64,000 nucleotides of DNA from NCBI GenBank assembly GCA_963693285.1, contig OY848921.1:2964497-3028496 (forward strand), written 5' to 3'. The DNA comes from Xestospongia muta (lineage: Eukaryota > Porifera > Demospongiae > Haplosclerida > Petrosiidae). The notes beneath the pieces were generated by a model, which was given only the letters and a program-made list of their open reading frames with translations, was not told the DNA's origin and did not search any database. Shown here piece by piece: positions 1,090 through 52,257 of this stretch (within the stretch, counting starts at the first letter, position 1; each line of letters starts with the position of its first letter). Position numbers and translations under genes: made by a program.

Positions 1090-1111
1090 ATGGGCGGATG
1101 TCTACGAAGAC
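1090..1111 (+). CDS. Gene B exon 1 (MGGCLRR), phase-1 exit
   Basis: ATG followed by 19 bases and then the donor GTAAGT (1112-1117). It encodes MGGCLRR and leaves one base (C) of the next codon. The block is conserved at 12205 (broken), 21897 and 39389, each time upstream of a family copy, and nowhere else in the window. Gly2 and Cys4 resemble a dual-acylation (myristoyl/palmitoyl) N-terminus, although Arg at position 6 is not ideal for N-myristoyltransferase. The start is chosen because this is the only conserved coding-like block ahead of the array and its phase matches exon 2. Confidence 0.6.
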
Positions 1112-1117
1112 GTAAGT

Positions 1118-4100
1118 CAAATCAAATCTTACAGACCATGCAATGAGGAATTTGTTGTTCATCAAATTATTGCACATAATTGAATATCTATGAATTTAAC
1201 AAGTTATAGTTCATTTTGGATTATGGATTCAAATAAAATATATCATGAACACCTATATTGCATTAATTTAACATCACTCTGAGATGCTCTCTTACTAATA
1301 GTGTTGTATTATTTATGCAAAACATAGACCCAATACAGTCTAATATCAAAGACAAGGCTTAACCATTTTTTAAAATAAATATCGTTTTGGATATAAAATC
1401 CGTATTTTATTGATAGTTCATTCCAGACCTCCACAGTGGCATAAGTCAGGTCAGCCACACTAGAGACTAATACTGTAGTGTGGTAATATCCTATGTCCTT
1501 TTCTTAGTCTGGCAAACAGACCTTTCACTTCTAGTTCTTTATTAAGATGGGGTAGACCAGAGAAATGTCTGGAGAATCTTGACATGATTCCATGGACTCT
1601 ACAGGAATGTTTGTAGAGCCAACAAGAAATATTAGCTAGCCACATTTAATATTAAGATGGAAAAAGCTATCAGGTAGCAGTGAAAGTGCTTGGTTGCATG
1701 AATTTACAAGAAAGCAGAAAGAAGCAATATTACACTACTTTCAAAGTAAAGAAAGGTACTGATGTTTATGGTACTGTGCCAACCAGACCAAATCTAGTGA
1801 CCTTAGCACATAATGCTACTTTTTTAGCCTTTCTTTTATTGAATTTGATAACAAGATACTTTAGTACAAAATATAATACATGATATCACATAATTGTATT
1901 CATAACAGAGCTATTACAACTATAACTAAAACTTACAATTATTTTACTGCTATAACTAACACTGATAAGATAAGAAAAGAGTATCAACACAAAATAGTAC
2001 ATGTGGTATTTTGTGTTGACACTATAATACTATTTTGTGTTGATATATAGTCTATACTATACCAATTGTTTGTACTATACCTATAGTTTACTTGTACCCA
2101 AGTAAACTATAGATAGAGTATAGACTGTATAATGTCCCTATACCAAATACTTCTTATATCATCAATATAAGTGCCTATATTGATACCTACATCAGGATAG
2201 TTACAACCCACATTGACATATGCATATAGAAATGCCATTATTATTATACATCAAATTATACGTGCACTTATGCACTTGCAACTGTAATATAGCTAATAGC
2301 TGTGACATTAAATTGTTGTCTACTAATACTTACCTGTTCTTAATAAAATCAATAAGACCTACAGTACTAGTACTGGATATGCTGCTGTCCAAATAAATCA
2401 TTTCTCATATATTGTCAAGTGTTGTTCATCACAACATACACAGTATAATGCTGTTTTCATTCTTTTATTTTATATACTTATAGATAACTTGGTTGTAATG
2501 TATTTTTGTAAGTATTTTACATTGGCTTTAGTATGATAGAAAAACATTTAAGAGTACTTGGTGAACAGGCTACACATAGCTTTCTCAGAACTTGAAATTG
2601 TTCACGGAAGTAGTAGTAGTTTCTTACAAGTGATATTTAGATTATTATAGTATATATTGTTCATTAGTAATGGATACTAATTATAATATTAATATTAAAA
2701 ATCTGAGCATAATTGTGATCAGCCAACCATGTGAACAAATGAGTCAAGGTGTTTCTTACTTGCTTGAAGGTCCATTTCTCATTTATTTCACTTGACATTG
2801 TTTGTGCTCTGACTTGTTACTGGAAAGAGACTGAAGCTACTGCAATACCTTGGTGTGATAAGCTGTTCTGTAAAGGATTACAGATGCAGAGTTGCATTAA
2901 AGTCCTCAAATTTGGTATAAAGTCCATACTACATGATAAAATGATCCTACTCCTAAACCCTAAACGACATCTATACATAGCAAAGTATAATTTCTACCTG
3001 ATCTATAGGCATTCTTATTGTAAACTCTGTCTAACAAGATAAAAGATTCTAATTAATCCGTAGGTTAAACATGATATATCTGCATATACACAAAATAATG
3101 GCCATGGAAGCAAATAATAAAAATTGTTTTGAAAAATGAAAAAAGAAAAAAAATAGAAAAAAAATAATAAAGAAACATTTCAAACATTGAAAGATGTAAG
3201 GATGACAATTCCTAAAAAGAAAGAAACAAGATAGAATGACTACACAAATTCATACTAAAATCCCAACATAAGTACTCAAATCTTAAAGTTAAGCAAAGCT
3301 GTTAATTATAATTACAACTTGAATAGTAAATACTGCTATATCATTGTATGTGGTCTTTCAGTAGGAGCAATGCATCGTGGATAAAATAAAAGCCTATAAT
3401 ACTGATACTGATACTGCTATACATACAGTCTTATATCTTGAATCAAATAAATATTAGTAAGACTGATATTGATTGGCTACTTATGTTGGGTTATGTATAT
3501 GTATTTGAGCATTTCCCTGTATTGTGTTTTTCCTTTTTGGGATTGTCATCTCCACGTGTTTCATTTTTAAAATGTTATTAAAATGTAATAGTGTAATAAC
3601 TTGTTCCATGTACAGACACCATAATCATATAGTGTAAAATAAAACAAACACCTCTCCTTACAACTATGTAGTAAACTAGAACCACTTAGCTGTCTAACGT
3701 CTGGTGATTAACTTTATCGTTCTTTGATATTCAACATTTATGTGTGATTTGTTTTCTTCCATATTAACTAATGTATTGTTCACAATTAATTTTTTATTCT
3801 ACATCAATGATCACTGAACAATACAGAACATATCTTATAGAAATTTTGGTGAGCGTTTTAATTTTTGCCACCACACTCAAAATTAATTAATGTACTCACT
3901 TTTAATAAACTTTCATCAGCTATTGAGTTTAGTCTACAAAATATCTTATTCCTAAATTACCTTTTAAATTTTAATCAAAAGTTGCAACAAACATTGTGTA
4001 AGTAGTTATAAGCTTATATTCCTGCATTATATTTTCTTTTTAATATCAATCAAAATTCTGTCAAAATTGTAATTAGTTGATTATTTTTCTTCTTCAACAT

Positions 4101-4120
4101 GAACCAAAATAATTGTATCA
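1118..4120 (+). other. Gene B intron 1, part upstream of the repeat array
   Basis: About 3 kb with no convincing exon. It holds a fold-back element (1985-2126) and a poly-A-rich stretch near 3120-3180. Open frames such as 2749-3042 have no recognisable protein features and are not conserved in the parallel introns of D and F. Confidence 0.5.
1985..2126. repeat. Fold-back (MITE-like) element, copy 1
   Basis: Two nested inverted repeats are visible. CAACACAAAATA (1985-1996) pairs with TATTTTGTGTTG (2007-2018), and CTATAGTTTACTT (2081-2093) pairs perfectly with AAGTAAACTATAG (2100-2112) around the loop GTACCC. Outside these, AGTCTATACT (near 2049) pairs with AGTATAGACT (near 2116). A diverged copy sits at the equivalent place in gene F intron 1 (41641-41780), so it predates that duplication. 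No coding sequence is present. Confidence 0.6.
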
Positions 4121-4151
4121 AATAATATTGGTGAATATTAAACCAATATAG

Positions 4152-7100
4152 AATGTAAGTTTAATATATTTATTAATTAATTTAATTGCCATTTTTGTCA
4201 ATTTTTTCTATTCAATATCTATTAATGATTGCATCAAATATTGGTGATTATGAAACAATACAGCTTGTGAGTGTAATATATTCACTGATATACTCAACTG
4301 ACATTTTCTCCATTCTTTTCTTTGATATCAACCAATGATCAAATATTGGTGATTATAAAACAATACAGCTAGTGAGTATATATACTTATTAATTTTCTCA
4401 ATTGACATATTGTCCATTCTTCTCTTAAATATCAACCAATGATCAAATATTGGTGATTATGATATTCTACAGAAAGTGAGTACAATAAACATATTAATCC
4501 ACTTAATTGATATTAAACTTGTCATTTCTCTTCAATATCAACCACTGATTACAATAAATATTGGTTATTATTAAACGATACAGCTGGTAAGTATATATAC
4601 TTATTAATTTGCTCAAATGACATTTCGTCCATTCTTCTCTTGAATATCAACCAATGAACTAAAATATTGGTGATTATGAAACATTATAGATGGTGAGTTT
4701 AGTATACTTATTAATTCCTTCATTTCACGTTTTGTTCATTCTTGTCTTCAATATCAACCAATGATTACATCAAATATTGGTGATTATCAAACAATACAGT
4801 TGGTGAGTATACTTTACTTGATACTTTATTTAATTGACATTTGTCCATTCTTCTTTTTGATATCAACCAATGAAAATATATATTGGTGATTATAAAATAT
4901 TATAGATCGTGAGTTTAGTATACTTATTAATTCACTCAAATGACTTTGTTCATTCTTCGCTTCAATATCAACCAATGACTCTATTAAATATTGGTGATTA
5001 TGAAACAATGTAGCTTGTGAGTATAATATACTTATTATTTACTCAATTGACATTTGTCCATTCCTCTCTTTAATGTCAACATGTTAAATTAAATAATGAC
5101 TAATTTGAAACAATACAGATCGTGAGTTAATTATGCTTATTATATCTCTCAATTGACATTTGTCCATTCTTCTCTCCAATATCAACTAATGACTGTATTT
5201 AATATTGGTGATTATCAAACAATGCAGCTTGTGAGTACACTATACTTATTAAATTACTCAATTAACATCTGTCTGTTCTTCTCTTTAATATTAACTAATT
5301 AAATATTGGTGATTATAAAACAATATAGATTGTGAGTTTAATGTACTTTTAAATTTACTCAATTGACTTTTTGTCTATTTTTCTCTTCAATAAACCAATG
5401 ATTACATGAAATAATGAAAATACAGCTGGTGAGTACAATATTTTTATTAATTTTACCCAATTAATTTTTATCCACTATTTACCTCAATATTAACAATGAT
5501 TACATCACATATTGACAATTATGAAACAATATAGATTGTGAGTACAATACACTTAATAATTTACTTGATTGACATTTTGCCTATTGTTTTCTTCATTTTA
5601 AACCAATTATCACATCAAATATTTGTTATTATGAAAATACAGCTGGTGAGTATAATATACTTAATAATTATTTAATTGACTTTTTGTCCATTCTTCTCTT
5701 CGATATCAACCAATGATTGCATCAAATATTGGGGATTATGTAACAATTCAGGTTGTGAGTTTAATGTACTTATTAATTTTATTCAATTGACGTTTTGTCC
5801 ATTCTTTTTTTAATATAAACTGATGATTGTATCAAATATTGTGATTAATATGAAACAATACAGATTGTGAGTATAATATACTCAATTGGTTTTTTTTTTA
5901 CTCAATTTGTATTTTTTTTATTCTTCTCTTCAATATCAACCAATATTGCATCAAATATTGGTGATTATAAAACAATATAGCTTGTGAGTACAATAATACT
6001 AATTGATTATTTCAATTTACATTTTGTTTATTCTTCTCTTCAATATCAATCAATTATCAATCAATGATTGCATCAAATATTTGTGACTATCACACAATAT
6101 AGCTCGTGAGTGCTTGAACTAATTAATTGTCAATTAACTTGTCCATTCTTTTCTTTAATGTCTACAAATATTTGCATCAATTAATAATGATTATAAAACA
6201 ATAAAGTTGGTGAGTGTAATATATCTATTAATTTACTCAATTCACATTTTAAATTCTTCCCTTCAATATTATCTAATGATTGCATAAAAATATTGGTTAT
6301 TTTAAATAATATAGCTGGTGAGTAAAATATGCATAATAATTAACTTAAGTGACATTCTGTCAATTTTCTCTTTAAAATCAAACAATGATTGCAACAAATA
6401 TTGGCAACTATGAAACATATAGCTTGTGAGTATAATATATTTATTAATTTTCTTACTTGAAATGTGTATATTTGTCTCTTAAATATCAAACATTGATTGC
6501 ATCAAATGTTTGTAATAATGAAACAATACAGCTCGTAAGTATATCTATCTATCTATCTATCTATCTATATATATATATATATATATACATATTTAATGAT
6601 TTTATTAAATGCTCAATTACTTTTTGTCAATTCTTCTCTATAATATCAACAAATGATTGCATCAAATTTTGATAATTATGAAACAATACAGGTGGTGAGT
6701 GTAATACTTGCTAATTTACTCAATTCACATTTTTATATTTTTTTCCTTCAATATTAACCAATGGTTATGTTAAATATTGATGATTATAAATGATACAGTT
6801 TGTGAGTAAAAATATATATTAATTTACTAAATTGATTTTTTGTTCATTTTCTCTTCAATATCAATCAACAATTGCTTTAAATGTTTGTCATTTAAAAACA
6901 ATATAGCTTGTGAGTATAATATACATATTAATTTGCTCAATTGACATTCTATTCATTCTTCTTTTCAATATCAACCAATGATTGCATGAAATGTTGGTCA
7001 TTTTGAAACATCAAAGCTCGTAAGTATAATGATTTTATTAATTTGCTCAATTGATTTTGTCAATTCTAATCAATATCAACAAATGATTACGTCAAATATT

Positions 7101-8941
7101 GGTGATTATGACACAATACAGGAGGTGAGTGTGATATACTTATTAATATATTATAATTACTCAATCCACAATTTTTATTTTCTTCCTTCAATATTAACCA
7201 ATGATTGTATAAAATATTAATGATTATGAAATAATACAGTTTGTGAGTATAATATACTTAATTTACTTAATTGACATTTTGTTCATTCTTTTCTTCAATA
7301 TCGATCAATGATTGCATCAAATATTGGTGATTAATAAACCAATACAGCTTGTGAGTGTATTGATTTATTTTAAATTTGTTCAATTGATTTTTGTTAATTC
7401 TTCTCTTCAAAATCAACAAAAATTGCATATATTTTTGGTAATTATGAAAATACAGGTGGTGAGTGTAATATTCTTGTTAATTTACTCAATTCACACTTTT
7501 CTATTTTCTTTCCTTCAATATTAACCAATTTATATATAATATATTGGTGATTATAAATGACACAGTTTGTGAGTAAAATATATAAATTAGTTTTCTAAAT
7601 TGACATTTTGTTCATTTTTATCTTCAATATTAACCAATCATGCTTCAAATATTGGTGTTATGAAACAATAATAGCTTGTGAGTATAATACACTTATTAAT
7701 TTACTAAATTTCATATTGTCCATTGTTCTCTTCAATATCAACCAATGATTGCATCAAATATTGGTGATTATAAAACAATACAGCTCGTGAGTGTATTAAT
7801 TTTTTTAATTTACTCAATTGATTTTTTTTCCATTTTTCTCTTCAATATCAATGAATGATTGCATTAATGTTTGGTGACAATAACACAATATAGGCAGTGA
7901 GTATAATATACTTATTAATTTACTAAATCACATTTTATCTTTTGTTCCCTTCAATGTTAACCAATGATTACATCAAATATTGATTATTATAAAACAATAC
8001 AGCTCGTGAGTGTATTAATTTTCTTAATTTACTAAATCTTTTTCCATTTTTTCTCTTCAATATCAATGAATGATTGCATTAATGTTTGGTGACAATAACA
8101 CAATATAGGCAGTGAGTATAATATACTTATTAATTTACTAAATCACATTTTATCTTTTCTTTCCTTCAATATTAACCAATGATTATATAAAATATTGGTA
8201 ATTATAAATGACACATGCAGTTTGTGAGTAAAATATATAAATTAGTTTTCTAAATTGACATTTTGTTCATTTTTCTCTTCAATATTAACCAATCATGCTT
8301 AAATCACATTCCATCTTTTCTTCTCTTCAATATCAACCAATGATTGCATTAAATATTGGTGATTATAAAACAATACAGCTCGTGAGTGTATTAATTTTTT
8401 AATTTACTCAATTGATTTTTTTTCCATTTTTTCTCTTCAATATCAATGAATGATTGCATTAACATTTGGTGACAATAACACAATATAGGCAGTGAGTATA
8501 ATATACTTATTAATTTACTAAATCACATTTCATGTTTTCTTTCCTTTAATATTAACCAATGTTTGTAACAAATATTGGTGATTATGAAAAATACAGGTGG
8601 TGAGTGTAATATTTTTATTAATGTATGAATTGAAATGCTGTCTCTTCTTCTCTTTTAATTTCAACTAGTGATTTCATCAAATATTATTGACTTGGATGTA
8701 GTTAGTGAGTATGATCTACTTAATACAATTGGTATTTTGTCTATTTTTTTACAATATCAATACCTGCTTTTCTCTGTGATATGAACTGAAAATTGTATCA
8801 AAAATTGATTATAAGTAGACAACAAGGTTGGTAAGTGAAATGATTTTATTTTTAATGAGCTCAATTATTTATTTAACATTATGTGTATTCCATTCAATAT
8901 CAACCATGCAATAATAATTTTTATACAATAAGCTGGTTAGT
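4152..8941 (+). repeat. Array 1 (gene B): 44 tandem ~111-bp units, each with YAG|NNN|GTRAGT
   Basis: Consensus order in a unit: donor GTGAGTATAATATACTTATT, AT-rich spacer, pyrimidine tract TTCTTCTCTTCAAT, ATCAACCAATGATTGCATC, ATATTGGTGATTATGAAAC, AATACAG, then three variable bases and the next donor. Position and triplet of each unit: 4152 AAT, 4264 CTT, 4369 CTA, 4473 AAA, 4584 CTG, 4690 ATG, 4800 TTG, 4906 ATC, 5014 CTT, 5119 ATC, 5228 CTT, 5329 ATT, 5426 CTG, 5535 ATT, 5643 CTG, 5752 GTT, 5864 ATT, 5981 CTT, 6103 CTC, 6207 TTG, 6315 CTG, 6423 CTT, 6532 CTC, 6692 GTG, 6799 TTT, 6907 CTT, 7017 CTC, 7122 GAG, 7240 TTT, 7348 CTT, 7456 GTG, 7566 TTT, 7675 CTT, 7784 CTC, 7894 GCA, 8003 CTC, 8109 GCA, 8221 TTT, 8379 CTC, 8489 GCA, 8597 GTG, 8702 TTA, 8827 (four bases, GTTG), 8933 CTG. 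Donors are GTGAGT except GTAAGT at 4155, 4587, 6535, 7020 and 8831 and GTTAGT at 8936. Read in phase 1 after exon 1 there is no stop; a middle stretch reads DVDPYPYSDSGYSSLAAS. The repeat structure is directly seen. Use as 3-nt exons is inference. Confidence 0.9.
6541..6589. repeat. (ATCT)n(AT)n microsatellite inside array 1
   Basis: A short tetranucleotide run followed by AT dinucleotides lies directly downstream of the donor GTAAGT at 6535. It lengthens that unit without touching the splice-like signals. Confidence 0.9.
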
Positions 8942-8982
8942 TAAATATGTATAAATAAATATAGTGATGGTTTGTTTTTTAG

Positions 8983-11121
8983 CTGCTTTTGAAACACCTT
9001 CACAATCAAATCAAAGTAAGACTACAATGTTAGTGTGTTATTATGTAATTATTACTCATAGCAGCTTTGGCAGTTGAAAAAGGTAATTTCAATGTGTTTT
9101 CTATCTCATTATTTTTATAATTATTGTCATTGCAATTAAAGAAACCTCAGGTATATGTTAGTATATTGTAAAATATGTATATATGTTTGCTGTATAATAG
9201 ATGATTCTCAGATAAAATTATCTGATAATCTGAATGATCTACTGCTCAAGTGTCCCAAACAAGTCACAGTTTGTAAAGAGCTGTCATTTATTGCAAAATA
9301 TGATGATCAACAGCAGATGTTTCAGTTGTCAGATTATGGAATAAAACTTATCATACCACCATCAGCTGTACCACATGATATTCAACAGATCACAATTGCT
9401 GTTCAAGTTATTGCTTCTGGTCCATTTATCTTTCCTTCTTATTGTCATCCAATCAGTTGTTTCTACTGGATCCAGTCCACACACAAATTCCTCAAACCAA
9501 TAGAAGTTCATCTTGAACATCATGCTGAACTTCTCTCTGAGGAAGATAGTCAAGAATTGGGATTCATTGTCTCTCCTAGCACTGAATCCTCCTCACCTCC
9601 ATATCGATTTCAGTTCTCTGATGGAGTCAATTCCATCTTTCCAGTTGGTTCTAGCTATGGTATTATCGAAGTTGCTGAGTTCTCAATTTTCTCTATTGCA
9701 TGGAAGAGGATAAGGGCTACATTTAGTGATCATTTCAGATATATATGGATGGTTTACTACAGGCAGAGTCATGAGAATAATTGGGAGTTACATGTAGTTG
9801 TGACAAAAAACTTGGGACCTTTTCTACAGGTATATTAGCTGTAAAGTTATTGTAAAAATATAAATTACCGTTTTATTATTATATGTGGACAGAGTCCTAG
9901 AAAGGAGTACATTATTATTAATAATTTATTATTTATTAAATTATTATTTATTAATTATTTATTATTTAATTTATTTTATTATGTAATTATTTATGGTATA
10001 TATTGACAGAGTGCTAAAGATGAGTATACTAACTGGATTGAGTACATTAAACCAAAGCTATTTCAATTTGATGATACTAAATCTATTCAAGTCAAGTTCC
10101 CAGAAGATGATCAAGTAGTCAACAATTGGAGACTATCAACTCAAGCTAATCCTTGTCGGGTAATGAGTAAATGTTTTGACTATATTTTATATTCCATTAT
10201 TGTATATAATAAGGTGAACAAATCTGATGTAGATGAAAGTAAACCAGATACTTGTTTACTACATCTTGACTTAAATGTGGAATTAGAGATGTCAAGCAGT
10301 ACAAGACAACTTCCTCTAGAAGTGAAGTTTCAAGGAATGAGAGAGGAAAACACTTCCTTTAAATTTTCTGTCAGAATATCAAGACCTATAACAGGTACTG
10401 CGAATTTGCATAATTGTAAAGATAAAATATGAACACTATAACTTAAAGTCCTTATACATGATTTGCAAGACACTAGAGGTACGTACACCTACTAGAGCAT
10501 GTTGTGACAGTACGTAATATACTAATTCAAACAATAGAAATATACTGGTGTCTGTAACACTACAAAATCATCACATCGTGCGGAATTTTCCAATGAAGCA
10601 TTTTATAAAGAACCTAAAATTATCGTTGTCTTTATTATAATAGATCCACCACATGTACAGTATGTTGAGTTTTCTGATACAGAAGTTTATGGAGAGCCTG
10701 AAATAGCAGAACTCATGGAGTTTGCTGGTACAAAGGTGAGTGTGTAATTATTAACCACATATTTAAAGAATTATATCTTAATACAGTAATTCTTTATCAA
10801 AGAGAGTTATATACTAAACTAATGTATATAAAGATGATTAAATCTTCATTATATTAATCTATTTTACAGATTTGTCACAAGTGGGACATACTTGGTGACA
10901 TGCTTAAAGTGCCAGACAGTATACTTGCCTCTATTAGGAGGAATACTTCTATTGGAGGAGATTCTAAACTCTCTATTAGAGAAATGTTCATTGAGTGGTC
11001 ACATTCTCGTTCTTCACCTTATAATTGGGAAACACTTCTGACAGTATTATCTACAGAAACAGTAGGAGAAAGAGGCCTGGCTAAAGAAATAGCCAAGAGG
11101 TTGAAAGATAGATCTGTGTAG
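8983..11121 (+). CDS. Gene B exons 2-9: ZU5-UPA-Death protein, intact
   Basis: Exons: 8983-9015 (33 nt), 9062-9082 (or from 9065), 9143-9151 (9 nt), 9201-9829, 10010-10159, 10214-10394, 10644-10735, 10870-11121 (TAG). The first three are phase 1 on both sides. Exon 5 carries the ZU5 domain, with the family core DYGIKLIIPPSAVPHD. Exons 6-7 look like the UPA domain that follows ZU5 in UNC5, PIDD and ankyrins. Exon 9 is a Death fold (KWDILGDMLKV...LSIREMFIEWS...YNWETLLTVL). With exon 1 and 43 of the 44 array triplets (leaving out the 4-nt one) the coding length is 1518 nt, about 505 aa with no stop. A 20-base remnant of an exon-6 start lies at 9891-9910, followed by an expanded ATT-rich stretch before the real acceptor at 10009. 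Related Death proteins act in apoptotic or immune signalling; the role here is unknown. Confidence 0.8.
10449..10478 (+). CDS. Candidate 30-nt cassette exon 7b of gene B
   Basis: Inside intron 7, AAAG is followed by 30 bases and then GTACGT. Read in phase 1 it gives VLIHDLQDTRG and returns to phase 1, so inclusion would keep the frame. In C a related sequence (HDLQGIRATPTK) is joined directly to exon 7 before a donor at 15227. In D and G the same segment is 29 nt and would shift the frame. This suggests an old alternative exon that is decaying in some copies. Confidence 0.4.
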
Positions 11122-15200: not shown

Positions 15201-15709
15201 AGGCATAAGAGCAACACCTACTAAAGGTATGTATGCTATGATGTTACTATGTTAAATCAAGCAATAGCAACATAATTGTTGTCTTTATTATAACAGAATC
15301 ACCACATGTACAGTATGCTGAATTTTCTAATACAGAAGTTGATAGAGAGCCTGAAATTACAGATCTCTTGGAGCTTGCTGGTACAAAGGTGAGCATGTAA
15401 TAATTAATTACATATTTAAAAGATATTTCTTAATATGATAAGTCTATAATCAAACATAAATTTAGATAATTAAATGTTTGTCTCCTTGTTAATTTTATTT
15501 TACAGATTTGTCATAAGTGGGACATACTTGGTGACATGCTCAAAGTGCCAGACAGTATACTTGCCTCTATTAGGAGGGATACTTCTATTAGAGGAGATTC
15601 TATACTCTCTATTAGAGAAGTGTTCATTAAATGGTCACAGTCTCGTTCTTCACCTTATAATTGGGGAACACTTCTATCAGCATTATCAACAGAAACAGTG
15701 GGAGAATGA
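12205..15709 (+). pseudogene. Gene C: broken ZU5-Death copy with a collapsed array
   Basis: The exon-1 remnant at 12205 reads MGGYL then TGA, and its donor has become ATAAGT. Only two array units remain, AAT at 13528 and TTG at 13632. Exons 2 (14013-14045) and 3 (14094-14114) look normal; exon 4 (near 14150) no longer has a length divisible by three. The ZU5 exon starts at 14197 but has TAA at 14565-14567 where other copies have CGA, and its donor is lost (CAAGTT near 14790). Exon 6 (14844-14984) has a TGA, also from CGA. Exons 7 and 8 are near 15041-15226 and 15297-15388. The Death exon (15506 onward) stops at TGA 15707-15709, about 15 codons early. The many independent lesions make a functional protein very unlikely. 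Confidence 0.85.
13528..13640 (+). repeat. Two-unit remnant array of gene C (AAT, TTG)
   Basis: TAG|AAT|GTGAGT at 13528-13536 and CAG|TTG|GTAAGT at 13632-13640. These are the unit types found near the very start (AAT) and end (TTG) of the long array of D, so this looks like an array collapsed to its two edges by deletion. Confidence 0.75.
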
Positions 15710-15759
15710 GACCTGGCTGAAGAAATAGCCAGGAAGTTGAAACAAAGATCTGAATAGAC

Positions 15760-21896: not shown

Positions 21897-21918
21897 ATGG
21901 GAGGGTGTCTAGGAAGAC
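21897..21918 (+). CDS. Gene D exon 1 (MGGCLGR), phase-1 exit
   Basis: ATG plus 19 bases, then donor GTAAGT at 21919-21924. It encodes MGGCLGR with one base carried over. Of the four copies this one fits an N-myristoylation signal best (Gly at position 6), with Cys4 as a possible palmitoylation site. It lies 3.1 kb ahead of array 2. Confidence 0.6.
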
Positions 21919-22270: not shown

Positions 22271-22315
<45 letters not shown>

Positions 22316-24950: not shown

Positions 24951-25025
24951 TTGATATTACTTGTATTTCTCTGTTTAATGTTGATCAATGGTTGCATCAA
25001 AATTGGTGAATATGACACATTACAG

Positions 25026-39388: not shown

Positions 39389-39410
39389 ATGGGAGGATGT
39401 CTAAGAAGAC
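39389..39410 (+). CDS. Gene F exon 1 (MGGCLRR), phase-1 exit
   Basis: ATG plus 19 bases and donor GTAAGT at 39411-39416. It encodes MGGCLRR with one base carried over. Its upstream block (from about 39160) matches those of B and D, and the first array 3 unit follows 2.9 kb downstream. Confidence 0.6.
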
Positions 39411-39416
39411 GTAAGT

Positions 39417-42300: not shown

Positions 42301-42348
42301 GAACAATAAATGCATCAAAATAATATTGGTGATTATTAAACAATACAG

Positions 42349-45300
42349 CTTGTGAGTATAACATATATATTATGCTTATTAAATTGCTCAATTGACATTT
42401 TCTTCATTCTTCATTTCTATATCAACCAATGATTGTATCAAACATGGGTGATTATCCTATAATATAGCTGGTGAGTATAATATATCAATTAGTTTACTCA
42501 ATTAAATTTTTCCCACTTTTCTCTTCAATATCAACCAATGATTGTATCAAATATTGGTGATTATCTATACAATACAGCTTGTGAGCATAACAACTTACTA
42601 ATTTGTTAATTAACATTTTGTCTACTCTTCTCTCCTCTCCAATATTAACCAATGAATACATTAATATTGACAAATATGTAACAATACAGCTAGTGAGTGC
42701 AATATATTCATTAATTTACTTATTTAACATTTCTCCATTCTTCTCTTTAATATAAAAAATGATTGAATTGAATATTGTGATGATAAAACAATACAGATCG
42801 TGAGTATAATATATATTCATTAATCTAATTAGTTACATTATGTCTATTTTTAACCAATTATTGTGCAAATATTGGTGATTATGTAACAATACAGCTGGTG
42901 AGTATTATATATACTTATAAATTTACTTAATTTACATTTTGTCCACTCTTCTCAAACATTAATTGTATTAAATGCTGGTTATTATGAAACAATACAGTAG
43001 GTTAGTATAATATAACTATTAATTTGCTTAATTGACATTTTGTTCACTCTTCTCTTCAATATAAATCAATGATTACATCAACTATTGGTAATTATTAAAC
43101 AATATAGCTAGTGAGTATAATATACCTATAATCTTTACTCAATTAACATTTTGTCCATTTTCTTCAACCATATATTATATGAAATATTGTGATTAATATG
43201 AAACATTACAGATTGTGAGTATAATAAACGTATGAATTGAGTAGTTGACAATTTGTTCATTTTTCTCTTCAATATCAACCAATGATTACATCAAATATTA
43301 ATGATTATCATGCAATCTAGCTGGTGAGTATAATATACTTATTATTCCAACTCAAATATTTTTTGTCCTTCAATAATAACTAATATTAGCATCAAATATT
43401 GCGATTAGTATGGACAATACAGATTGTGAGTATAATAAACTTTTTAATTTATTCAATTGACATTTTGTCCACTCTCTATTTAATATCAACTAATGATTAC
43501 ATCAAATATTGGTGATTATCATACAATATAGTTTGTGAGTTAAAAAAATTATTAATTTACTAAATTGACATTTGTCCACTCTTCTATTTAATATCAACCA
43601 ATGACTGCATCAAATATTGGTGATTATCATACAATACAGTTTGTGAGTTTAAAAAATATATATATGAAATTCGATTGACATTTGTCAACCCTATTATTTT
43701 ATACCAACCAATGATTGTATGAAATATTGACAAATATGTAACAATACAGCTAGTAAGTGCAATATATTTATTAAAAATTTTATTGATATTTGTCCATTGC
43801 CCTCTTTACTGTCAAAAAATCATTTGATCAAATATTGGTGATTATAACAAAAATACAGACCGTGAGTATAAATATGCATATTTATTAATTTACTTCATTT
43901 ACTTTTTTTCCATCTTTCTCAACCAATGATTGTGCAAATATTTGTGATTATGTAACAATACAGCTTGTGAGTATAATATATACTTATTAATTTACTTAAT
44001 TTGTATTTTTTCCATTCTTCTCAAACATTGATTGTATTAAATGTGGATAATTATAAAACAATACAGTAGGTTAGTATAATATAACTATTAATTTGCTTAA
44101 TTGACATTTTGTTCACTCTTCTCTTCAATATAAATCAATGATTACATCAACTATTGGTAATTATTAAACAATATAGCTAGTGAGTATAATATACCTATAA
44201 TCTTTACTCATTTAACATTTTGTCCATTTTCTTCAACCATATATTATATGAAATATTGTGATTAATATGAAACATTACAGATTGTGAGTATAATAAACGT
44301 ATGAATTGAGTAGTTGACAATTTGTTCATTTTTCTCTTCAATATCAACCAATGATTACATCAAATATTAATGATTATCATGCAATCTAGCTGGTGAGTAT
44401 AATATACTTATTATTCCAACTCAAATATTTTTTGTCCTTCAATAATACCTAATATTAGCATCAAATATTGCAATTAGTATGGACAATACAGATTGTGAGT
44501 ATAATAAACTTTTTAATTTATTCAATTGACATTTTGTCCACTCTCTATTTAATATCAACTAATGATTATATCAAATATTGGTGATTATCATACAATATAG
44601 TTTGTGAGTTAAAAAGATTATTAATTTACTAAATTGACATTTTGTCTTCTCTTCTATTTAATATGAACCAATGACTGCATCAAATATTGGTGATTATCAT
44701 ACAATACAGTTTGTGAGTTTAAAAAATATATATATGAAATTCGATTGACATTTGTCAACCCTATTATTTTATACCAACCAATGATTGTATGAAATATTGA
44801 CAAATATGTAACAATACAGCTAGTAAGTGCAATATATTTATTAAAAATTTTATTGATATTTGTCCATTTCCCTCTTTATTGTCAAAAAATCATTTGATCA
44901 AATATTGGTGATTATAACAAAAATACAGACCGTGAGTATCAATATACATGTTTATTAATTTACTTCATTTACTTTTTTTCCATCTTTCTCAACCAATGAT
45001 TATGCAAATATTTGTGATTATGTAACAATACAGCTCGTGAGTATAATATATACTTATTAATTTACTTAATTTGTATTTTGTCCATTCTTCTCAAACATTG
45101 ATTGTATTAAATGTGGATAATTATAAAACAATACAGTAGGTTAGTATAATATAACTATTAATTTGCTTAATTGACATTTTGTTCACTCTTCTCTTCAATA
45201 TAAATCAATGATTACATTAACTATTGGTAATTATTAAACAATATAGCTAGTAAGTATAATATACCTATAATCTTTATTCAATTAACATTTTGTCCATTTT

Positions 45301-48300
45301 CTTCAACCATATATTACATCAATATTGTGATTAATATGGAACATTACAGATTGTGAGTATAATAAAGTTATTAATTGAATAGTTGACAATTTGTTCATTT
45401 TTCTCTTCAATATCAACCAATGATTACATCAAATATTAATGATTATCATGCAATCTAGCTGGTGAGTGTAATATACTTATTATTCCAACTCAGATATATT
45501 TTGTTCTTCAATAATAACTAATATTAGCATCAAATATTACGATTAGTATGGACAATACAGATTGTGAGTATAATAAACTTAATTTATTCAATTGACATTT
45601 CACTCTTCTATTTAATATCAACTAATGATTACATCAAATATTGGTGATTATCATACAATACAGTTTGTGAGTTAAAAAAATTATTAATTTACTTAATTGA
45701 CATTTTGTCCACTCTTCTCTTCAATATCAACTAATGATTGCATTATATATTTATAATTATCGTACAATACAGTTTGTGAGTTTAGAAACTTATTAATTTA
45801 ATTCAATTGAATTTGTCAACTCTATTCTTTTATACCAATCAATGATTGCATCACATATTGACAAATGTGTAACAATACAGCTAGTAAGTGCAATATATTT
45901 ATTAAAATATTTTATTGACATTTGTCCATTACCCTCTTTGTTATCAAAAAATTATTTAATCAAATATTGGTGATTATAAAAAATACAGACCGTAAGTATA
46001 ATATATATATATATTTACTTCATTTACATTTTGTCCATTTTTCTCAAACAACGATTGTTCAAATGTTGGTAATATGTAACAATGCAGCTGGTGAGTACAA
46101 TATACTTATTAATTTACTCAATAAACATTTTATCCCTTTTTGTTATTCAATGATGTTGTTAAATATTGATGATTTTGAAACAATATAGCTGGTGAGTATA
46201 ATATATTTATTAATTTTCTTATTTTACATTTTGAGCATTCTTCTCAACCATTGATTTTATTAAATGCGGATAATTATGAAACAATACAGTTGGTTAGTAT
46301 AATATAACTATTAACTTACTCAATTAACATATTATTCACTCTTCTCTTCAATATAAATCAATGATTACATCAACTATTGGTAATAATTAAACAACATAGT
46401 TAGCGAGTATAACATACTTATAAATTTTATTCAGTTAACATTTTGTTCATTTTCCTCAACCATTTATTGCATCAAATGTTATTATTAATATGGAACATTT
46501 ACAGATTGTGAGTATAATAAATTTATGATTTTATTAATTACCTTTTGTTCATTTTTCTCTCTAATATCTATCAACCAATGAATGCACCAATTTTTGGTGA
46601 TATAACAATACAGTTGGTGAGTATGATATACTTACTAATTTTACTCAATTGGTATTTTATTCTTCAATATTAAACAATGATATCACCAAATATTGTCATT
46701 AATATGGAACAATTCAGATTGTGAGTATAATATTCTTATTAGTTTACTCAATTGACGTTTTTCCATTTTCTATTCAATATAAATCAATGATTGTATCAAC
46801 TATTGGTAATTATTAAACAATATAGCTGGTGAGTATCATATACTTTTAAATTTTACTCAGTTAACATTTTGTCCATTTTCCTCAACCATTTATTGCATCA
46901 AATATCATTATTAATATGGAACATTACAGATTGTGAGTATAATAAACTTATTAATTTATTCAATTGACATTTTGTCCATTTGTCTCTTCAATATTAACCA
47001 ATATTATATGAAATATGGTGATTATAAAACATTATAGCTGGTGAGTATGATGTTCCTATAAATTGACTCAATTGACTTTGTGTCTATTCTTCTCAAACAT
47101 CGATTGCATGCATCAATATTGGTGATTATTTGTTCTTTAACCAATTATTTCACCAAATATTGTCATTAATATGGAATGATACAGATTGTGAGTATGATAA
47201 TCTTATTAATTTATTCAATTGACATTTTGTCCATTTTCCTTTTCAACATCAACCAATGATTATATCAAATATTGGTGATAATCATACAATATAGTTTGTG
47301 AGTTAAAGCGTATAAATTCACTTAATTGACATTTTGTCCACTTTTCTCTCCATTAACAACCAATAATTATATTTAAAATGTTGATTGTCATACAATACAG
47401 TTTGTAAGTTCAAAATCTTGTTATTTTATTAAATTGACATTTTATCCACTCTTTTCTTTAATAACCAATGATTACATCAATATTGACAAATATGAAACAA
47501 TACAGCTAGTGAGTGCAATATATTTGTTAATTTACTTAATTGACATTTGTTTATTCTTCTCTTCAATATCAACCATTGATTGAATCAAATATTGGTAATT
47601 ATTATAACAATACAGCTGGTGAGTATAATATACTTATTAATTTTACTCAAATGAGTGCCCATTTTATCCATTTTTCTCAACCAATGATTGCATCAAATAT
47701 TGTGATTAAAATGGAACAATACAGATTGTGAGTATAGTTATTAATTTACTTAATTGACATTTTGTCTTTAATACAAACCAATGATTATGTCAAATATTGG
47801 TGTTTATGAAAAATACAGCTGGTGAGTATATTACACTTATTTATTTATTTAATTGATAATTTGTCCATTCTTCTTTTCCATATCAACCAATGCTTGGATC
47901 AAATATTGGTGATTATGAAACAATATAGCTTGTAAGTATAATATGATTATAACTTACTTGTTTGATAATTTTCTATTCTTTTCTTCATTATCAATAAATG
48001 ATCAATGATAAATGATAAATGATTAAAAATTTGTAATTATGAAACAATACAGCTGGTGAGTATAATATACTCAATTGATATTTTTACCAATTCTTCACTT
48101 CAATATCAACAAATATCTACTTCAAATTTTGGTGATTATTATTTAATACAGTTTGTGAGTTAAAAACCTTAGTTTACTTAATTGACATTTTCTCCACTGT
48201 TTTCTTTATAATCAACCAATGATTATATCCAAATTGATAAATATGTAACAATACAGCTAGTGAGCACAATATATTTATAAATATTATTCTAATATTTTGT

Positions 48301-50059
48301 CCATTTTTTTCTTTAATCAACCAATGATTGTATCAAATATTAATGATTATCATACAATATAGCTGGTAAGTATAATATACTTATTATTCCAACTCAAATA
48401 TTTTTTGTCCTTCAATAATAACTAATATTAGCATCAAATATTGCGATTAGTATGGACAGTACAGATTGTGAGTATAATAAACTTAATTTATTCAATTGAC
48501 ATTTGTCCACTCTCTATTTAATATCAACTAATGATTACATCAAATATTGGTGATTATCATACAATATAGTTTGTGAGTTAAAAAAATTATTAATTTACTA
48601 AATTGACATTTTGTCCACTTTTCTATTTAATATCAACCAATGACTATCAAATATTGGTGATTACCATACAATACAGTTTGTGAGTTAAAAATATATTAAT
48701 ATACTTCAATTGACATTTTGTCCACTGTTCTCTTTAATATTAACCAATGAGTACATCAATATTGACAAATATGTATCAATACAGCTAGTGAGTGCAATAT
48801 ATTCATAAATATACTTATATAGTTGACATATGTCCATTCTTCTCTATAATATAAAAAATGTTTCAATCAAATATTGGTGATTATTACAAAATACAGACGG
48901 TGAGTATAATATATATTTATTGATTTAATTTTGTCCATTTTTCATTTCAATGGTTGCATCAAAAATTTATTATTATTAAATAATACAGCTGGTGAGTACA
49001 ATATTACTTGATTTACTCAATTTAAAATTTTTCCATTTTTGTCAACCAATGATTGTTGAAATGTTGGGCAATTATGTAACAATACAGGTGGTGAGTGTAG
49101 TATACTTATTAATGTACTCAATAGACATTTTATTCCTTTTTGTCATCCAATTATTTCATCAAATATTGATGATTGTTAAACAATACAGCTGGTTAGTATC
49201 ATAAACTTTAAATTCTTACTCAATTGACATTTTTCCATTTTTCTTCAATATAAATTAATGATTGTATCAACTATTGGTAATTATTGAACAATATAGCTGG
49301 TGAGTATAATATACTTAAATTTTTTTACTCAATTGACATTTTGTCTATTTTCCTCAACCATTAATACATCAAATATCTTGATTAATATGAAACAATGCAG
49401 ATTGTGAGTATAATAAACTTATGAATTTATTAATTAACAATTAATTCCCTTTTCTCTCTAATATCAACCAATGGTTGCAATAAATATTAATGGTTATGAA
49501 ACAATACAGCTGGTGAGTATAATATACTTATTGAGTTTACTCAATTGGTATTTTATCTTTTAATATTAACCAATGATTGCACCAAACATTGTGATTAACA
49601 CGGAACAATACAGATTGTGAGTATCATATACTTATTTATTTACTTAATCAAAATTTTGTTTGTTCTTCTTTTTAATATAAACCAATGATTGAATCAAATA
49701 TTGGTGATTGTGAAACATAGCAGCCGGTGAGTATGATATTTTTATTAATTTACTCACTTGTCATTTTCATTCATTCTTTTCTTTAATATTAACCAATGAT
49801 TATATCAAATATTGTTGATTATCATACAATACAGTTTGTGAGTTAGAAACTTATTAATTTACTTTATTGAAATTTTGTCCATTCTTCTCTTCAATAACAA
49901 CCAATGATTGAATTATTAACTATTGTTAATTATACAATATAGCTGGTGAGTATCATATACTTATTAATGTTCTCAATCATTTGTTGATTCTTTTCATTGA
50001 TATCAACTAATGATTTCATGAAACATATTGATGAATACAAATCAATACAGTTGGTAAGT
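42349..50059 (+). repeat. Array 3 (gene F): 73 tandem ~107-bp units with YAG|NNN|GT donor
   Basis: Position and triplet: 42349 CTT, 42468 CTG, 42578 CTT, 42690 CTA, 42797 ATC, 42895 CTG, 42998 TAG, 43108 CTA, 43212 ATT, 43321 CTG, 43423 ATT, 43532 TTT, 43640 TTT, 43750 CTA, 43859 ACC, 43964 CTT, 44067 TAG, 44177 CTA, 44281 ATT, 44390 CTG, 44492 ATT, 44601 TTT, 44710 TTT, 44820 CTA, 44929 ACC, 45034 CTC, 45137 TAG, 45247 CTA, 45350 ATT, 45459 CTG, 45561 ATT, 45664 TTT, 45773 TTT, 45881 CTA, 45989 ACC, 46088 CTG, 46189 CTG, 46290 TTG, 46400 TTA, 46505 ATT, 46614 TTG, 46718 ATT, 46826 CTG, 46930 ATT, 47038 CTG, 47185 ATT, 47295 TTT, 47401 TTT, 47506 CTA, 47616 CTG, 47725 ATT, 47819 CTG, 47929 CTT, 48053 CTG, 48152 TTT, 48257 CTA, 48363 CTG, 48465 ATT, 48570 TTT, 48677 TTT, 48785 CTA, 48897 ACG, 48989 CTG, 49088 GTG, 49189 CTG, 49297 CTG, 49401 ATT, 49510 CTG, 49614 ATT, 49724 CCG, 49835 TTT, 49943 CTG, 50051 TTG. 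Non-GTGAGT donors are GTAAGT, GTTAGT, GTGAGC and one GCGAGT (46403). One unit near 47101-47160 has lost its signals. Phase 1 is open; a ten-residue motif NSDFFSNPLA recurs. Confidence 0.92.
42998..46087 (+). repeat. Higher-order repeat in array 3: ~1.07 kb ten-unit block, three copies
   Basis: The TAG-bearing units at 42998, 44067 and 45137 are 1069 and 1070 bp apart, and the nine units after each carry almost the same triplets in the same order. Near-identical sequence between the first two blocks shows recent tandem duplication of ten units at once, which in the coding reading adds ten residues. Confidence 0.9.
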
Positions 50060-50499
50060 TAACTTATTTTTTTTGTTCAATTGACATTACTTACATATTT
50101 TTTGCTTAATGTGGTACCCAATAATTGTATGTAAGTTTAAAGTGATATTTTAAATTAAATTGTCAATTTTATGTGTTATTATTATGTAACAATATTTGCT
50201 TTTGTTATATGATACATAATTATAGTAAGTTAATATTATAAAATGATAGACAATACTATATTCTCTTCATAATATTTTAAAATCATGTAACATGAAAATG
50301 ATTTGAATATTGTAATTAATTACTGTGTATATATCTCCCCATGTGAATAAATAAGTTACATCAGTGTTTAGTAATATATATCAAAGTTCAAGTAGTTTTT
50401 AAAACTAACAATTATTACTTTTATTATTGTAGTTTTGTTATACTTTGTACAACTGTTTGAATTATTATATAGCAATTTTAATGATTGTTTGTTATTTAG

Positions 50500-52257
50500 A
50501 TCTTCCAGAAAAACCTTCCCTATCAAAGCTAAGTAAGAGTACAAATATCAGTGAAATTAATATCCAATATTTAATATGTATTTAATGTCTAACCATTTCT
50601 TACAGCTGGTCTGACTGTTGGAAAAGGTAATTCAAATATCTTACCTATCTTATTACAATATTATTGTTGGAATTGAAAAAGCCTCTGGTATACATGTATA
50701 TTGTATTAATTATTTTGGCTGTCTAATAGATCTACTGCTCAAGTGCCCCAAACAAGTCACAGTTTGTAAAAAGCTGTCATTCATTGCAAAATGTGATGAT
50801 GAACAGCAGATGTTTCAGTTGCCAGATTATGGAATAAAACTTATCATACCACCATCAGCTGTACCACATGATATTCAACAGATCACAATTGCTGTTCAAG
50901 TTATTGCTTCTGGTCCATTTGTCTTTCCTTCTTATTGCCAGCCAATAGGTTGTTTCTACTGGATCCAATCCACACACAAATTCCTCAAGCCAGTAGAAGT
51001 TCATCTTGAACATCATGCTGAACTTCTCTCTGAGGAAGATAGTAAAGAGTGTGGATTTATTATCTCCCCTAGCACAGAATCCTCCTCACCTCCATATCAA
51101 TTTCAGTTCTATGATGGAATGAATTCCATCTTCCCAGTTGGTTCTAGCTATGGCATTATCAAAGTTGCTGAGTTCTCAATTTTCTCCATTGCGTGGAGGA
51201 AGATAAAGGATGCATTTAGTGATCATTTCAGATATGTCTGGATGGTATACTACAGGCAGATTAATGAGAATAATTGGGAGTTACATGTAGTTGTGACAAA
51301 AGACTTGGGACCTTTTATACAGGTATATTAGCTATGAGATTATTGTAAAATTTAGGTTATCATTAATTATTATTTGTGGTATATATTGACAGAGCGCTAA
51401 AGACGAATATACTAACTGGACTGAATGCATTAGACCAAATCGATTTCAATTTGATGATACTAAATCAATTCAAGTCATGCTCCCAGAAGATGATCAAGTA
51501 GTCAACAATTGGAGAATATCAAGTCAAGTTAATCCTTGTCGGGTAATGAGTAATTGTTTTGAATGTATTTTATATTAAATTATTGTATATAATAAGGTGA
51601 ACAAATCTGATGTAGATGAAAGTACACCAGATACTTGTTTACAACATCTTGAATTAAATGTGGAATTGGAGATGTCAGGTAGTACAAGACAACTTCCTCT
51701 AGAAGTGAAGTTTCAAGGAATGAGAGAGGAAAAGACTTCCTTTAAATTTTCTGTCAGGATACCGAGACCTTCAACAGGTAGTAGTGTATTAGTGGAGTTA
51801 ATAATGCTATAAGATAACATATTAACACTATAATGTAATAATTTGTTTCCATATAGTACCAACTCTTCCACCTACATCACAATATGAAGAGTTTCACAAC
51901 ACAGAAATTTATAGAAACCCTGAAATGGCAGATCTTGTATTATTTGAAGTGACAAAGGTGCCCTAAAGTATAAATTGGTGTATAAAGTAAATGATATTTT
52001 TGTAGATTTCCAAATGGAAATCACTTGGTGATGTACTTAAAGTACCAAACAATGATCTGTCAATTATTATGAGTGACCATCAAAGATGTGAGGATCGCTG
52101 TAGAGAAATGTTTAGTAAATGGATGCGATTATGTTCTACACCTCACACTTGGGGAACTATTCTGGTAGCTTTATCAACAATTGGAGAATTAGCCCTTGCT
52201 GATAAAATAGCCTTGGAGCTGAGAAAAAGATATTCCACATCTTCTGTATTCAATTAA
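50500..52257 (+). CDS. Gene F exons 2-9: ZU5-UPA-Death protein with divergent Death exon, intact
   Basis: Exons: 50500-50532 (33 nt), 50606-50626 (21 nt), 50682-50687 (6 nt), 50730-51322, 51393-51542, 51597-51777, 51857-51957, 52006-52257 (TAA). Exons 2-7 are close to D and G (DYGIKLIIPPSAVPHD core), but exons 8 and 9 are very different. Exon 8 is 101 nt (VPTLPPTSQYEEFHN...) instead of 92, and the Death exon reads ISKWKSLGDVLKVPNNDLSI... to YSTSSVFN with only scattered identity to the others (W, LGD, LKVP, MF.KW, TW/NW, AL). Introns 7 and 8 are also much shorter. With exon 1 and 73 array triplets the coding length is 1578 nt, 525 aa plus stop. F may be the oldest copy, homogenised only in its 5' and middle part. 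Confidence 0.8.

What the first reader, a model, noticed from the sequence alone, without database searches (positions are those of the whole stretch)
1090..52257. Tandem arrays of 3-nt exons (one codon per repeat unit) in a ZU5-Death gene family
Seen directly: three arrays (44, 62, 73 units) between exon 1 and exon 2 of copies B, D and F. In all but two of the 179 sites an AG preceded by C, T or A (never G) is followed by exactly three bases and then a GT (or one GC) donor hexamer. The three bases vary freely (CTT, GAT, CAC, TTT, ATG, ACC and others) while both flanks are fixed. Established: introns need a GT donor and YAG acceptor, and exons as small as 3 nt exist in animals, although I know of no array of them. 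Inference: each unit is an intron of about 105 nt plus a one-codon exon, so the gene builds a linker one residue per repeat. Exon 1 (22 nt) exits in phase 1, exon 2 enters in phase 1, and the full joins total 1518, 1521 and 1578 nt, each divisible by three and open to the stop.
Basis: partly seen in the sequence, partly recalled or inferred. Interest (0 to 1): 0.97.

Follow-up and report, generated by a model that had tools for sequence, protein, structure and literature searches.

The report
Genes spliced one codon per exon
A cluster of neighbouring genes in an unnamed, likely animal, genome carries tandem arrays of up to 165 sites, each an intron-like repeat followed by exactly three bases, and splicing is predicted to join those triplets into a protein linker written one codon per exon, which would be a gene layout without known precedent.

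Summary
Beyond B, D and F (42, 61, 73 profile-supported units), the same cluster has five more genes with arrays of 12-165 units. A profile finds 477 units, all on one strand. In 473 of 473 alignable units exactly three bases lie between acceptor and donor. First and third triplet bases are the most variable columns of the unit; AG and GT are the least variable.

Joining each triplet to the next in the phase of exon 1 gives 0 stops in 447 junctions (0 of 244 distinct per-gene pairs; shuffles average 13.3, 0 of 20,000 reach zero). Joining at distance 2-12, reversing the order, or using the two other phases does give stops. Wobble positions are 96% A/T. AG is depleted only downstream of a putative branch region (26 seen, 118.6 expected). 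Donors match U1 almost perfectly.

Most likely these are real, normally all-included one-codon exons, joined stepwise into a serine-rich linker between an MGGC N-terminus and a ZU5-Death-like tail. No transcript was available, so splicing is inferred, not shown. Seven searches of an open-licence library listed no precedent.

The parts
1090..1111 (+). Gene B exon 1 (22 nt, MGGCLRR, exits in phase 1, donor GTAAGT)
   Evidence: sequence
4150..8706 (+). Gene B array: 42 canonical units of about 108 nt, each AG|NNN|GTRAGT
8925..8941 (+). Candidate last unit of B, AAG|CTG|GTTAGT, also present in genes 3 and A
   Evidence: not in the unit profile
8983..9150 (+). Gene B small phase-1 exons 2, 3, 4 (8983-9015, 9065-9082, 9142-9150)
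9201..9829 (+). Gene B exon 5, ZU5-like domain
   Evidence: 8 of 8 paralogs match Pfam ZU5, best E 1.3e-4; B itself just under the curated cut-off
10010..11121 (+). Gene B exons 6-9 (10010-10159, 10214-10394, 10644-10735, 10870-11121), Death-like last exon
12205..15757 (+). Copy C: pseudogene with 2 units (13526, 13630), exon-1 donor ATAAGT, in-frame stop in the ZU5 exon at 14565
21897..21918 (+). Gene D exon 1 (MGGCLGR)
25024..31970 (+). Gene D array: 61 canonical units
32769..34764 (+). Gene D exons 2-9 (32769-32801, 32869-32883, 32994-33586, 33655-33804, 33859-34039, 34288-34379, 34513-34764; no exon 4)
39389..39410 (+). Gene F exon 1 (MGGCLRR)
42347..50055 (+). Gene F array: 73 canonical units (with repeats of a ten-unit block of about 1070 nt)
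50500..52257 (+). Gene F exons 2-9 (50500-50532, 50606-50626, 50730-51322, 51393-51542, 51597-51777, 51857-51957, 52006-52257; no exon 4); Death domain E 3.8e-6
54290..56633 (+). Copy G: 2 units (54290, 54392) plus ZU5/Death exons, no exon 1 found; exon-8 donor altered, likely a remnant
1..208 (+). End of the last exon of gene A (the rest, with a 36-unit array, lies upstream of the window)

Best explanation
Eight neighbouring ZU5-Death-like genes carry, between exon 1 and the next large exon, tandem arrays of 12 to 165 repeat units, and each unit is predicted to be a spliceosomal intron of about 107 nt plus a one-codon (3-nt) exon, so that splicing likely writes a variable, serine-rich linker one residue at a time. 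SHOWN by sequence: the fixed AG-NNN-GT spacing, the hypervariable triplets between invariant sites, the absence of stops only when neighbouring triplets are joined in order in the exon-1 phase, the AG-poor zone before the acceptor, the U1-like donors and a remote pyrimidine tract at -51 to -61. INFERRED: all or nearly all units are included; they are joined stepwise, because U1 and U2 are thought unable to sit on both sides of so short an exon at once. Each splice would add one codon to the growing exon and present the next, nearly perfect donor. INFERRED: the product is an MGGC N-terminus, a disordered linker of 12 to about 165 residues and a ZU5-Death-like tail. Since every unit is three bases, gain or loss of units would never shift the frame, so the linker could change length freely in evolution.
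For: Order and phase: 0 stops in 447 consecutive junctions, 0 of 176 pooled distinct pairs (shuffle mean 9.0, 0 of 5000 reach zero), 0 of 244 per-gene distinct pairs (mean 13.3, 0 of 20,000 reach zero). Lags 2-12 give 10-19 stops per 181-190 distinct pairs, near expectation; reversed order gives 12 of 176. Phase 2 gives 15 distinct stops against 11.7 expected; phase 0 meets TAG four times, in A and F. Keeping every unit whatever its splice sites still gives 0 of 461. Variability: triplet columns 1 and 3 have the highest entropy of 112 columns (1.73, 1.92 bits; middle 1.22); AG and GT are 0-0.09; indels per column 0.035 outside the core, 0-0.011 inside it (450 of 477 units). Introns: n = 427, median 107 nt; 409 of 427 have no AG in the 60 nt before the acceptor, against 8 of 49 ordinary introns of the same genes, many of which are shorter than that. 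Column-controlled AG test: upstream part 55 seen, 54.9 expected; from just before the pyrimidine tract to the acceptor 26 seen, 118.6 expected, z -15, while GA is not depleted. Donors: GTGAGT or GTAAGT in 437 of 473 units; at least 7 of 8 U1-paired positions in 425 of 458 canonical units, which were chosen to have G at +5, against 7 of 49 ordinary introns (the 7 and the 8 counted by me from its list). Codon structure: linker G+C at codon positions 1, 2, 3 is 0.47, 0.63, 0.04 pooled, third position 0-0.08 in each of eight genes. Peptide conservation: B shares six consecutive triplets (DSGYSS) with 3 and with A although the introns beside them are no more alike (0.76-0.89) than random units (mean 0.82). 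Six of eight joined genes are open to a normal stop.
Against: No transcript or peptide was available. Protein searches found no spliced product: none; one search gave 27 hits, and none of the 18 of 27 that I read carries a linker; the closest run from the ZU5 exon into intron sequence, so they are genomic frames. Exon 1 joined directly to the next exon is also open and in frame in 8 of 8 genes, so an array-skipping mRNA is possible. Some units look dead: 7 of 473 lack GT/GC and 2 lack AG, and genes 3 and A repeat a broken unit several times. Two pairs of units in gene 1 are only 30 nt apart (a 27-nt intron), too close for both to be ordinary exons. F, 2 and 5 could not show stop avoidance, since no lag from 1 to 8 gives a stop there. 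The z-scores of the AG test are generous: in the first form of it TA and CT also deviated strongly (z -20.5, -13.8), though only to 0.94 and 0.91 of expectation, and CG fell to 0.61; AG falls to 0.22 in the zone. A possible trade-off between G at -1 and weak donors is not significant after collapsing duplicates (p 0.19). I know of no case of 165 such exons spliced in a row.
Confidence: 0.87

Rival explanations
1. The array is an intronic minisatellite that spread by unequal exchange; its splice-like motifs are copied passively and mature mRNA joins exon 1 straight to exon 2.
For: Tandem duplication is obvious, including large repeated blocks. Exon 1 to the next exon is in frame without the array in 8 of 8 genes. 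No transcript seen.
Against: Passive copying would not keep 0 stops in 447 consecutive junctions in one phase while the other lags, order and phases tried have them. It does not explain the most variable columns lying between the least variable ones, an AG-poor zone with a sharp start, or A/T confined to the codon-wobble base.
Confidence: 0.05
2. The triplets are real exons but are spliced in and out in many combinations, so that one gene makes a repertoire of linkers, as in schistosome micro-exon genes.
For: Every unit is frame-neutral. In F, 2 and 5 no single skip makes a stop (0 of 71, 0 of 29, 0 of 10). Duplicated genes of a family with Death-like domains could use variation.
Against: Skipping is not protected: lag-2 joins give as many stops as chance, and single skips would make stops in D 16 of 59, gene 1 11 of 163, A 2 of 34, B 2 of 40, gene 3 2 of 27. 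Donors are mostly near-perfect rather than graded.
Confidence: 0.15
3. The units are recursive (ratchet) sites that help remove a long first intron; the three bases are a harmless by-product.
For: Acceptor and donor are nearly juxtaposed, as at recursive sites (AG/GT; passages of PMC6110457).
Against: Recursive sites leave no bases; here three remain and look to be under coding constraint. The array itself makes up more than half of the intron (B 4.6 of 7.9 kb) and units repeat every 110 nt or so, not every kilobase or more.
Confidence: 0.03
4. The arrays once worked but are now relics; current mRNAs skip them.
For: Some units are broken; copies C and G with two units each look like pseudogenes.
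Against: Recent duplicate units still differ hardly ever at AG and GT (0, 0.008, 0.016 and 0 per site in 123 pairs) while triplet bases 1 and 3 do (0.041, 0.065), and stop avoidance is complete even when weak units are kept.
Confidence: 0.03

Closest known systems
Single 3-nt microexons (NCAM, Drosophila troponin T) and the 1-nt exon of Arabidopsis APC11
   Same: Spliceosomal exons of one codon or less can be included (abstract of PMC4674806; passages of PMC8042270).
   Different: Those papers describe single such exons in a gene. Here 12-165 lie in a row and together would encode a whole protein segment.
Schistosome micro-exon genes (MEGs)
   Same: Many very small symmetrical exons within one gene (passages of PMC4350168).
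   Different: In MEGs such exons make up most of the coding region and are used for alternative splicing (same passages). Here units are exactly 3 nt, they arose by amplification of one intron+codon unit, most coding sequence is in ordinary exons, and order is constrained as if all are included. Sequence relation was not tested.
Recursive splicing / ratchet points of Drosophila long introns
   Same: Acceptor almost touching a donor, so each splice restores a 5' splice site (passages of PMC6110457).
   Different: Ratchet points are AG/GT with nothing between; here three coding bases would be kept at each step and the repeat is about 110 nt, while nearly all recursive segments in that study exceed 1 kb.
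ZU5-UPA-Death proteins (UNC5b, PIDD) and FIIND proteins
   Same: ZU5-like exon (8 of 8 paralogs match Pfam ZU5) and Death domain (E 3.8e-6 in F) in the same order as in UNC5b and PIDD (passages of PMC3210808).
   Different: The Pfam scan of B and F shows no LRR or CARD (transmembrane parts not tested); a tiny MGGC exon plus codon array stands in place of a larger N-terminal part.

Membership tests
Microexon (exon of 30 nt or less) | Short segment between an acceptor and a donor | tested here: met
   3 nt in 473 of 473 alignable units; AG 471, GT/GC 466; AG-poor zone and U1-like donors. Function of the sites is inferred from constraint.
Microexon (exon of 30 nt or less) | Inclusion in mature mRNA | not testable with these tools
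   No RNA data; protein searches returned no spliced product (18 of 27 hits read).
Schistosome-type micro-exon gene | Several very small symmetrical exons in one gene | tested here: met
   12-165 predicted exons of 3 nt per gene.
Schistosome-type micro-exon gene | Most of the coding region is in small symmetrical exons | tested here: not met
   The array gives 12-165 of 440-614 residues; the ZU5 exon alone is 593-629 nt.
Schistosome-type micro-exon gene | Alternative splicing of the small exons | tested here: inconclusive
   Skips are not protected from stops in genes 1, 3, A, B, D, which argues for full inclusion; RNA needed.
Recursive splice site (ratchet point) | AG directly followed by GT, leaving no exon bases | tested here: not met
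   Three bases lie between in 473 of 473 aligned units.
ZU5 domain family | Pfam PF00791 match above cut-off | tested here: inconclusive
   8 of 8 members match, best E 1.3e-4, but B (20.1 bits) is just under the cut-off of 21; 4 of 27 hits, all distant, carry precomputed PF00791. The structure model was too poor to use (pLDDT 38.9).
Death domain family | Pfam PF00531 match above cut-off | tested here: met
   F: 27.4 bits, cut-off 22.6. B itself does not match at E 0.1; its last exon is 44% identical to that of F.
N-myristoylated and palmitoylated proteins | Gly2 with a permissive position 6, Cys near the N-terminus | tested here: inconclusive
   MGGC in 8 of 8 assembled array genes, but residue 6 is R, Q or G; the motif is recalled and no predictor was run.

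The most novel reading that the evidence does not exclude
This is a new gene architecture: a protein segment stored as a tandem array of intron+codon units and written codon by codon through ratchet-like, all-inclusive splicing, up to about 165 times in one transcript. Array expansion, contraction and codon replacement would give a frame-safe way to remodel the linker of a Death-domain protein family, with the codons themselves diversifying faster than the introns around them.
Probability: 0.5. Interest if true: 0.98.

Novelty: categorically new. Interest (0 to 1): 0.95.

Why it matters
If transcripts confirm it, a gene can store a protein region one codon per exon, over a hundred times in a row, and the spliceosome can join such exons faithfully in order. 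That would set a new lower bound for modular gene structure and challenge the steric argument that very small exons are hard to recognise. It would give a natural system for studying stepwise splicing, with over 400 variants of the same intron in which donor, acceptor, branch region and AG exclusion can be read statistically. It also means that standard spliced aligners, for which 3-nt exons are hard to place, may have mis-annotated such genes wherever they exist. The parts (GT-AG introns, 3-nt exons) are known; the arrangement fails a defining feature of each of the two closest systems, micro-exon genes and ratchet sites.

Tried and rejected
Structured or known RNA in the units: Rfam finds nothing in the window at gathering scores. 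Structure prediction of the ZU5 exon from 8 paralogs failed (pLDDT 38.9) and was not searched further. PDB sequence search of the F tail gave no relative (best E 0.97). Exact matches to the unit core are absent from viral contigs and from bacterial/archaeal genomes, and no relative of the ZU5 exon was found there. Donor compensation by G at -1: significant only with duplicates kept (p 0.003 against 0.19 collapsed), so not used. Faster change of nonsynonymous triplet bases: in 123 mutual nearest pairs positions 1, 2, 3 changed 5, 2, 8 times against about 2.6 expected each at the intron rate of 0.0209; suggestive, too few to claim selection. Two first AG tests on gap-stripped columns created false AGs and were replaced. 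I wanted the number of such arrays genome-wide beyond this cluster; the only answered genome search (one unit core with up to 3 mismatches, a lower bound by the tool's own words) gave 97 matches, all at C5:2.890-3.014 Mb on one strand.
Full report
WHERE IT LIES. ZU5-Death-like genes, GT-AG introns and a PTB gene next door suggest an animal; a demosponge such as Amphimedon is my guess from recall and was not tested. I read 204 kb (C5:2864497-3068496, with one stretch of N) and laid out the family with exons of gene B as blastn queries. There are eight array genes: 1, 2, 3, 5 and A upstream of the window (A ends in it), B, D and F inside it. There are also copies C and G with two units each, a fragment with five canonical units and no gene found (4x), and several broken exon sets. 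The units are all on one strand.

THE UNITS. A scan without a profile shows three bases as the only favoured spacing between acceptor-like and donor-like motifs in the window: 175 sites, against at most 13 for any other spacing from 0 to 24. A profile of the whole repeat finds 477 units. Of the 473 with both splice columns aligned, 473 have length 3, 471 have AG, 466 have GT or GC. Canonical units (AG, GT/GC, G at +5) per gene: gene 1 165, gene 2 31, gene 3 29, gene 5 12, A 36, B 42, D 61, F 73, that is 449, plus 2, 2 and 5 in C, G and 4x, 458 in all. In gene 1 two pairs of units are only 30 nt apart, leaving a 27-nt intron, so 163-165 is the fair count.

VARIABILITY. Of 112 profile columns, first and third triplet bases are the most variable (1.73 and 1.92 bits; middle base 1.22); the AG and GT beside them are almost invariant (0-0.09). 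Indels per column run at 0.035 outside this core and 0-0.011 inside it (450 of 477 units, those with many gaps left out). A repeat that drifts as a whole should not look like this.

THE ORDER TEST. If triplets are joined in order after exon 1 (which ends one base into a codon), each codon is the last base of one triplet plus the first two of the next. In that reading 0 of 447 consecutive junctions is a stop. Distinct pairs pooled: 0 of 176, shuffle mean 9.0, none of 5000 shuffles at zero. Distinct pairs per gene, shuffled within genes: 0 of 244, mean 13.3, minimum 4 in 20,000 shuffles. The same triplets joined at distance 2 to 12 give 10 to 19 stops per 181-190 distinct pairs, near expectation; reversed order gives 12 of 176. 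The phase shifted by one gives 15 distinct stops against 11.7 expected, and reading triplets as plain codons meets TAG once in A and three times in F. Keeping all aligned units, weak ones included, still gives 0 of 461. The signal comes from genes 1, 3, A, B and D; in 2, 5 and F no lag from 1 to 8 gives stops, so they are silent. I read this as constraint on exactly this order, this phase, and inclusion of neighbouring units.

CODON STRUCTURE. Pooled over 458 codons, G+C is 0.47, 0.63 and 0.04 at codon positions 1, 2, 3; the third position is 0-0.08 in each of the eight genes, against 0.27-0.29 in their ordinary exons. The intron sequence is 0.21 G+C. A splicing constraint on the middle base could add to this. 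The predicted linkers are rich in S (146 of 458), P, L, A, T, Q and R. Gene B shares six consecutive triplets (ATT CTG GTT ATT CTT CTC, read DSGYSS) with gene 3 and with A. Shuffling the order in one gene gives such a run in 1 of 300 (3-B) and 0 of 300 (A-B) cases, while the introns beside those units are 0.76-0.89 identical between B and 3 or A, like random units (mean 0.82). Genes 3 and A are recent copies there (introns 0.94-0.99), so they count once. I noticed this motif before testing it; the shuffles ask for any shared run. DSGxxS resembles a phosphodegron from recall; untested.

THE INTRONS. 427 unit introns have a median of 107 nt. Donors are GTGAGT or GTAAGT in 437 of 473 units; at least 7 of 8 U1-paired positions match in 425 of 458 canonical units (chosen for G at +5), against 7 of 49 ordinary introns of the same genes (my count from the list). 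The pyrimidine tract lies far upstream, at -51 to -61 (0.81-0.94 pyrimidine per column), and 409 of 427 introns have no AG in the last 60 nt. To control for shared ancestry I compared A before G with the base frequencies of the same column: upstream of the tract 55 AG seen and 54.9 expected, from just before the tract to the acceptor 26 seen and 118.6 expected (z -15), while GA is not depleted (425 introns). Other dinucleotides also deviate in such a test (TA and CT at 0.94 and 0.91 of expectation, CG at 0.61), but AG falls to 0.22 and only in the zone. This is what scanning from a branch point to the first AG would select. The branch point itself is not identified; TTGA(C/T) just upstream of the tract is a candidate by eye.

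HOW IT PROBABLY WORKS. Microexons are proposed to suffer because U1 and U2 cannot assemble on both sides at once (passages of PMC4317164 and PMC10250204). I infer that units are handled as introns one at a time: after one splice the triplet belongs to a longer exon, and its donor, nearly perfect over +1 to +8, is ready for the next. The remote pyrimidine tract and AG-poor spacer may give room between U2/U2AF and the next U1. Which direction the array is spliced in is unknown. Product: exon 1 (MGGC...), linker, small phase-1 exons (absent in gene 5), ZU5-like exon, Death-like last exon. Six of eight joins (2, 3, 5, B, D, F) are open to a normal stop; gene 1 is open but its usual stop is out of frame and the next lies 4 codons further if the exon runs on; A is shifted near its C-terminus by a 25-nt insertion and meets two stops there. 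The domains: ZU5 in 8 of 8 paralogs at best E 1.3e-4, the scanned first member just below the cut-off; Death in F at 3.8e-6.

AGAINST. No RNA was available. Exon 1 joined directly to the next exon is also open and in frame in 8 of 8 genes. Public protein searches returned no spliced product (none; of 27 hits I read 18, none with a linker). Broken units exist. These leave room for skipping, at least in some tissues.

PRIOR WORK. Searches for Amphimedon or sponge microexons, 3-nt exons, tandem or consecutive microexons, single-nucleotide exons with recursive splicing, micro-exon genes, and one-codon exons listed no array of this kind by title or abstract; the library is open-licence PMC only. 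Papers seen: PMC4674806 (abstract, opening and outline); passages only of PMC4350168, PMC6110457, PMC8042270, PMC4317164, PMC10250204, PMC3210808 and PMC12909245. Individual 3-nt exons and even a 1-nt exon are known, as are genes rich in small symmetrical exons and ratchet sites without exon bases. The codon-per-exon array fails a defining feature of each of the last two, which is why I rate the architecture categorically new while its parts are familiar.

Noticed in passing
C5:2887545-2911025, upstream of the window (L011-L013): The largest copy (gene 1): MGGCLRK exon 1, 165 canonical unit sites over about 18.7 kb, then ZU5-like and Death-like exons; two unit pairs are only 30 nt apart.
   Followed up: yes
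window 16719-19475, - strand: Broken BEL/Pao-type retroelement remnant: one frame matches Peptidase_A17 (E 1e-31); four other frames tested match nothing in Pfam.
   Followed up: partly
window about 22310-22800: Element with inverted ends (CAGTAGAA...TTCTACTG) inside the first intron of gene D, resembling a pogo/Tigger-type DNA transposon by eye.
   Followed up: no
window 57967-58800, - strand: Single-frame gene with a PTB/PID domain (E 4.6e-10); 25 relatives in public data, best 95% identical.
   Followed up: partly
window 58987-61879, + strand: Start of a SNF2-family gene with a PHD finger (SHPRH-like by eye), with a 66-bp direct repeat spanning what looks like an intron end and exon start at 61417-61546.
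   Followed up: no
window 1-208: The last exon of gene A has a 25-nt insertion relative to paralogs that shifts its C-terminus.
   Followed up: partly
genes 3, A, B (window 5533-6101 in B) and, as DSGY, gene 2: The linker peptide DSGYSS is kept across paralogs; it resembles a DSGxxS phosphodegron (recalled).
   Followed up: partly
end of the ZU5 exons, e.g. window 9201-9829: EFSIFS motif, invariant in 8 of 8 aligned paralogs, reminiscent of the SF/S and HFS autocleavage motifs of ZU5-UPA proteins (PMC3210808 passages); not tested.
   Followed up: no
window 53575-53925 and 19976-20060: A minisatellite of ACATAGTAAGT-like units (for the first stretch, by eye for the second); its GTAAGT motifs are not part of the arrays.
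   Followed up: no
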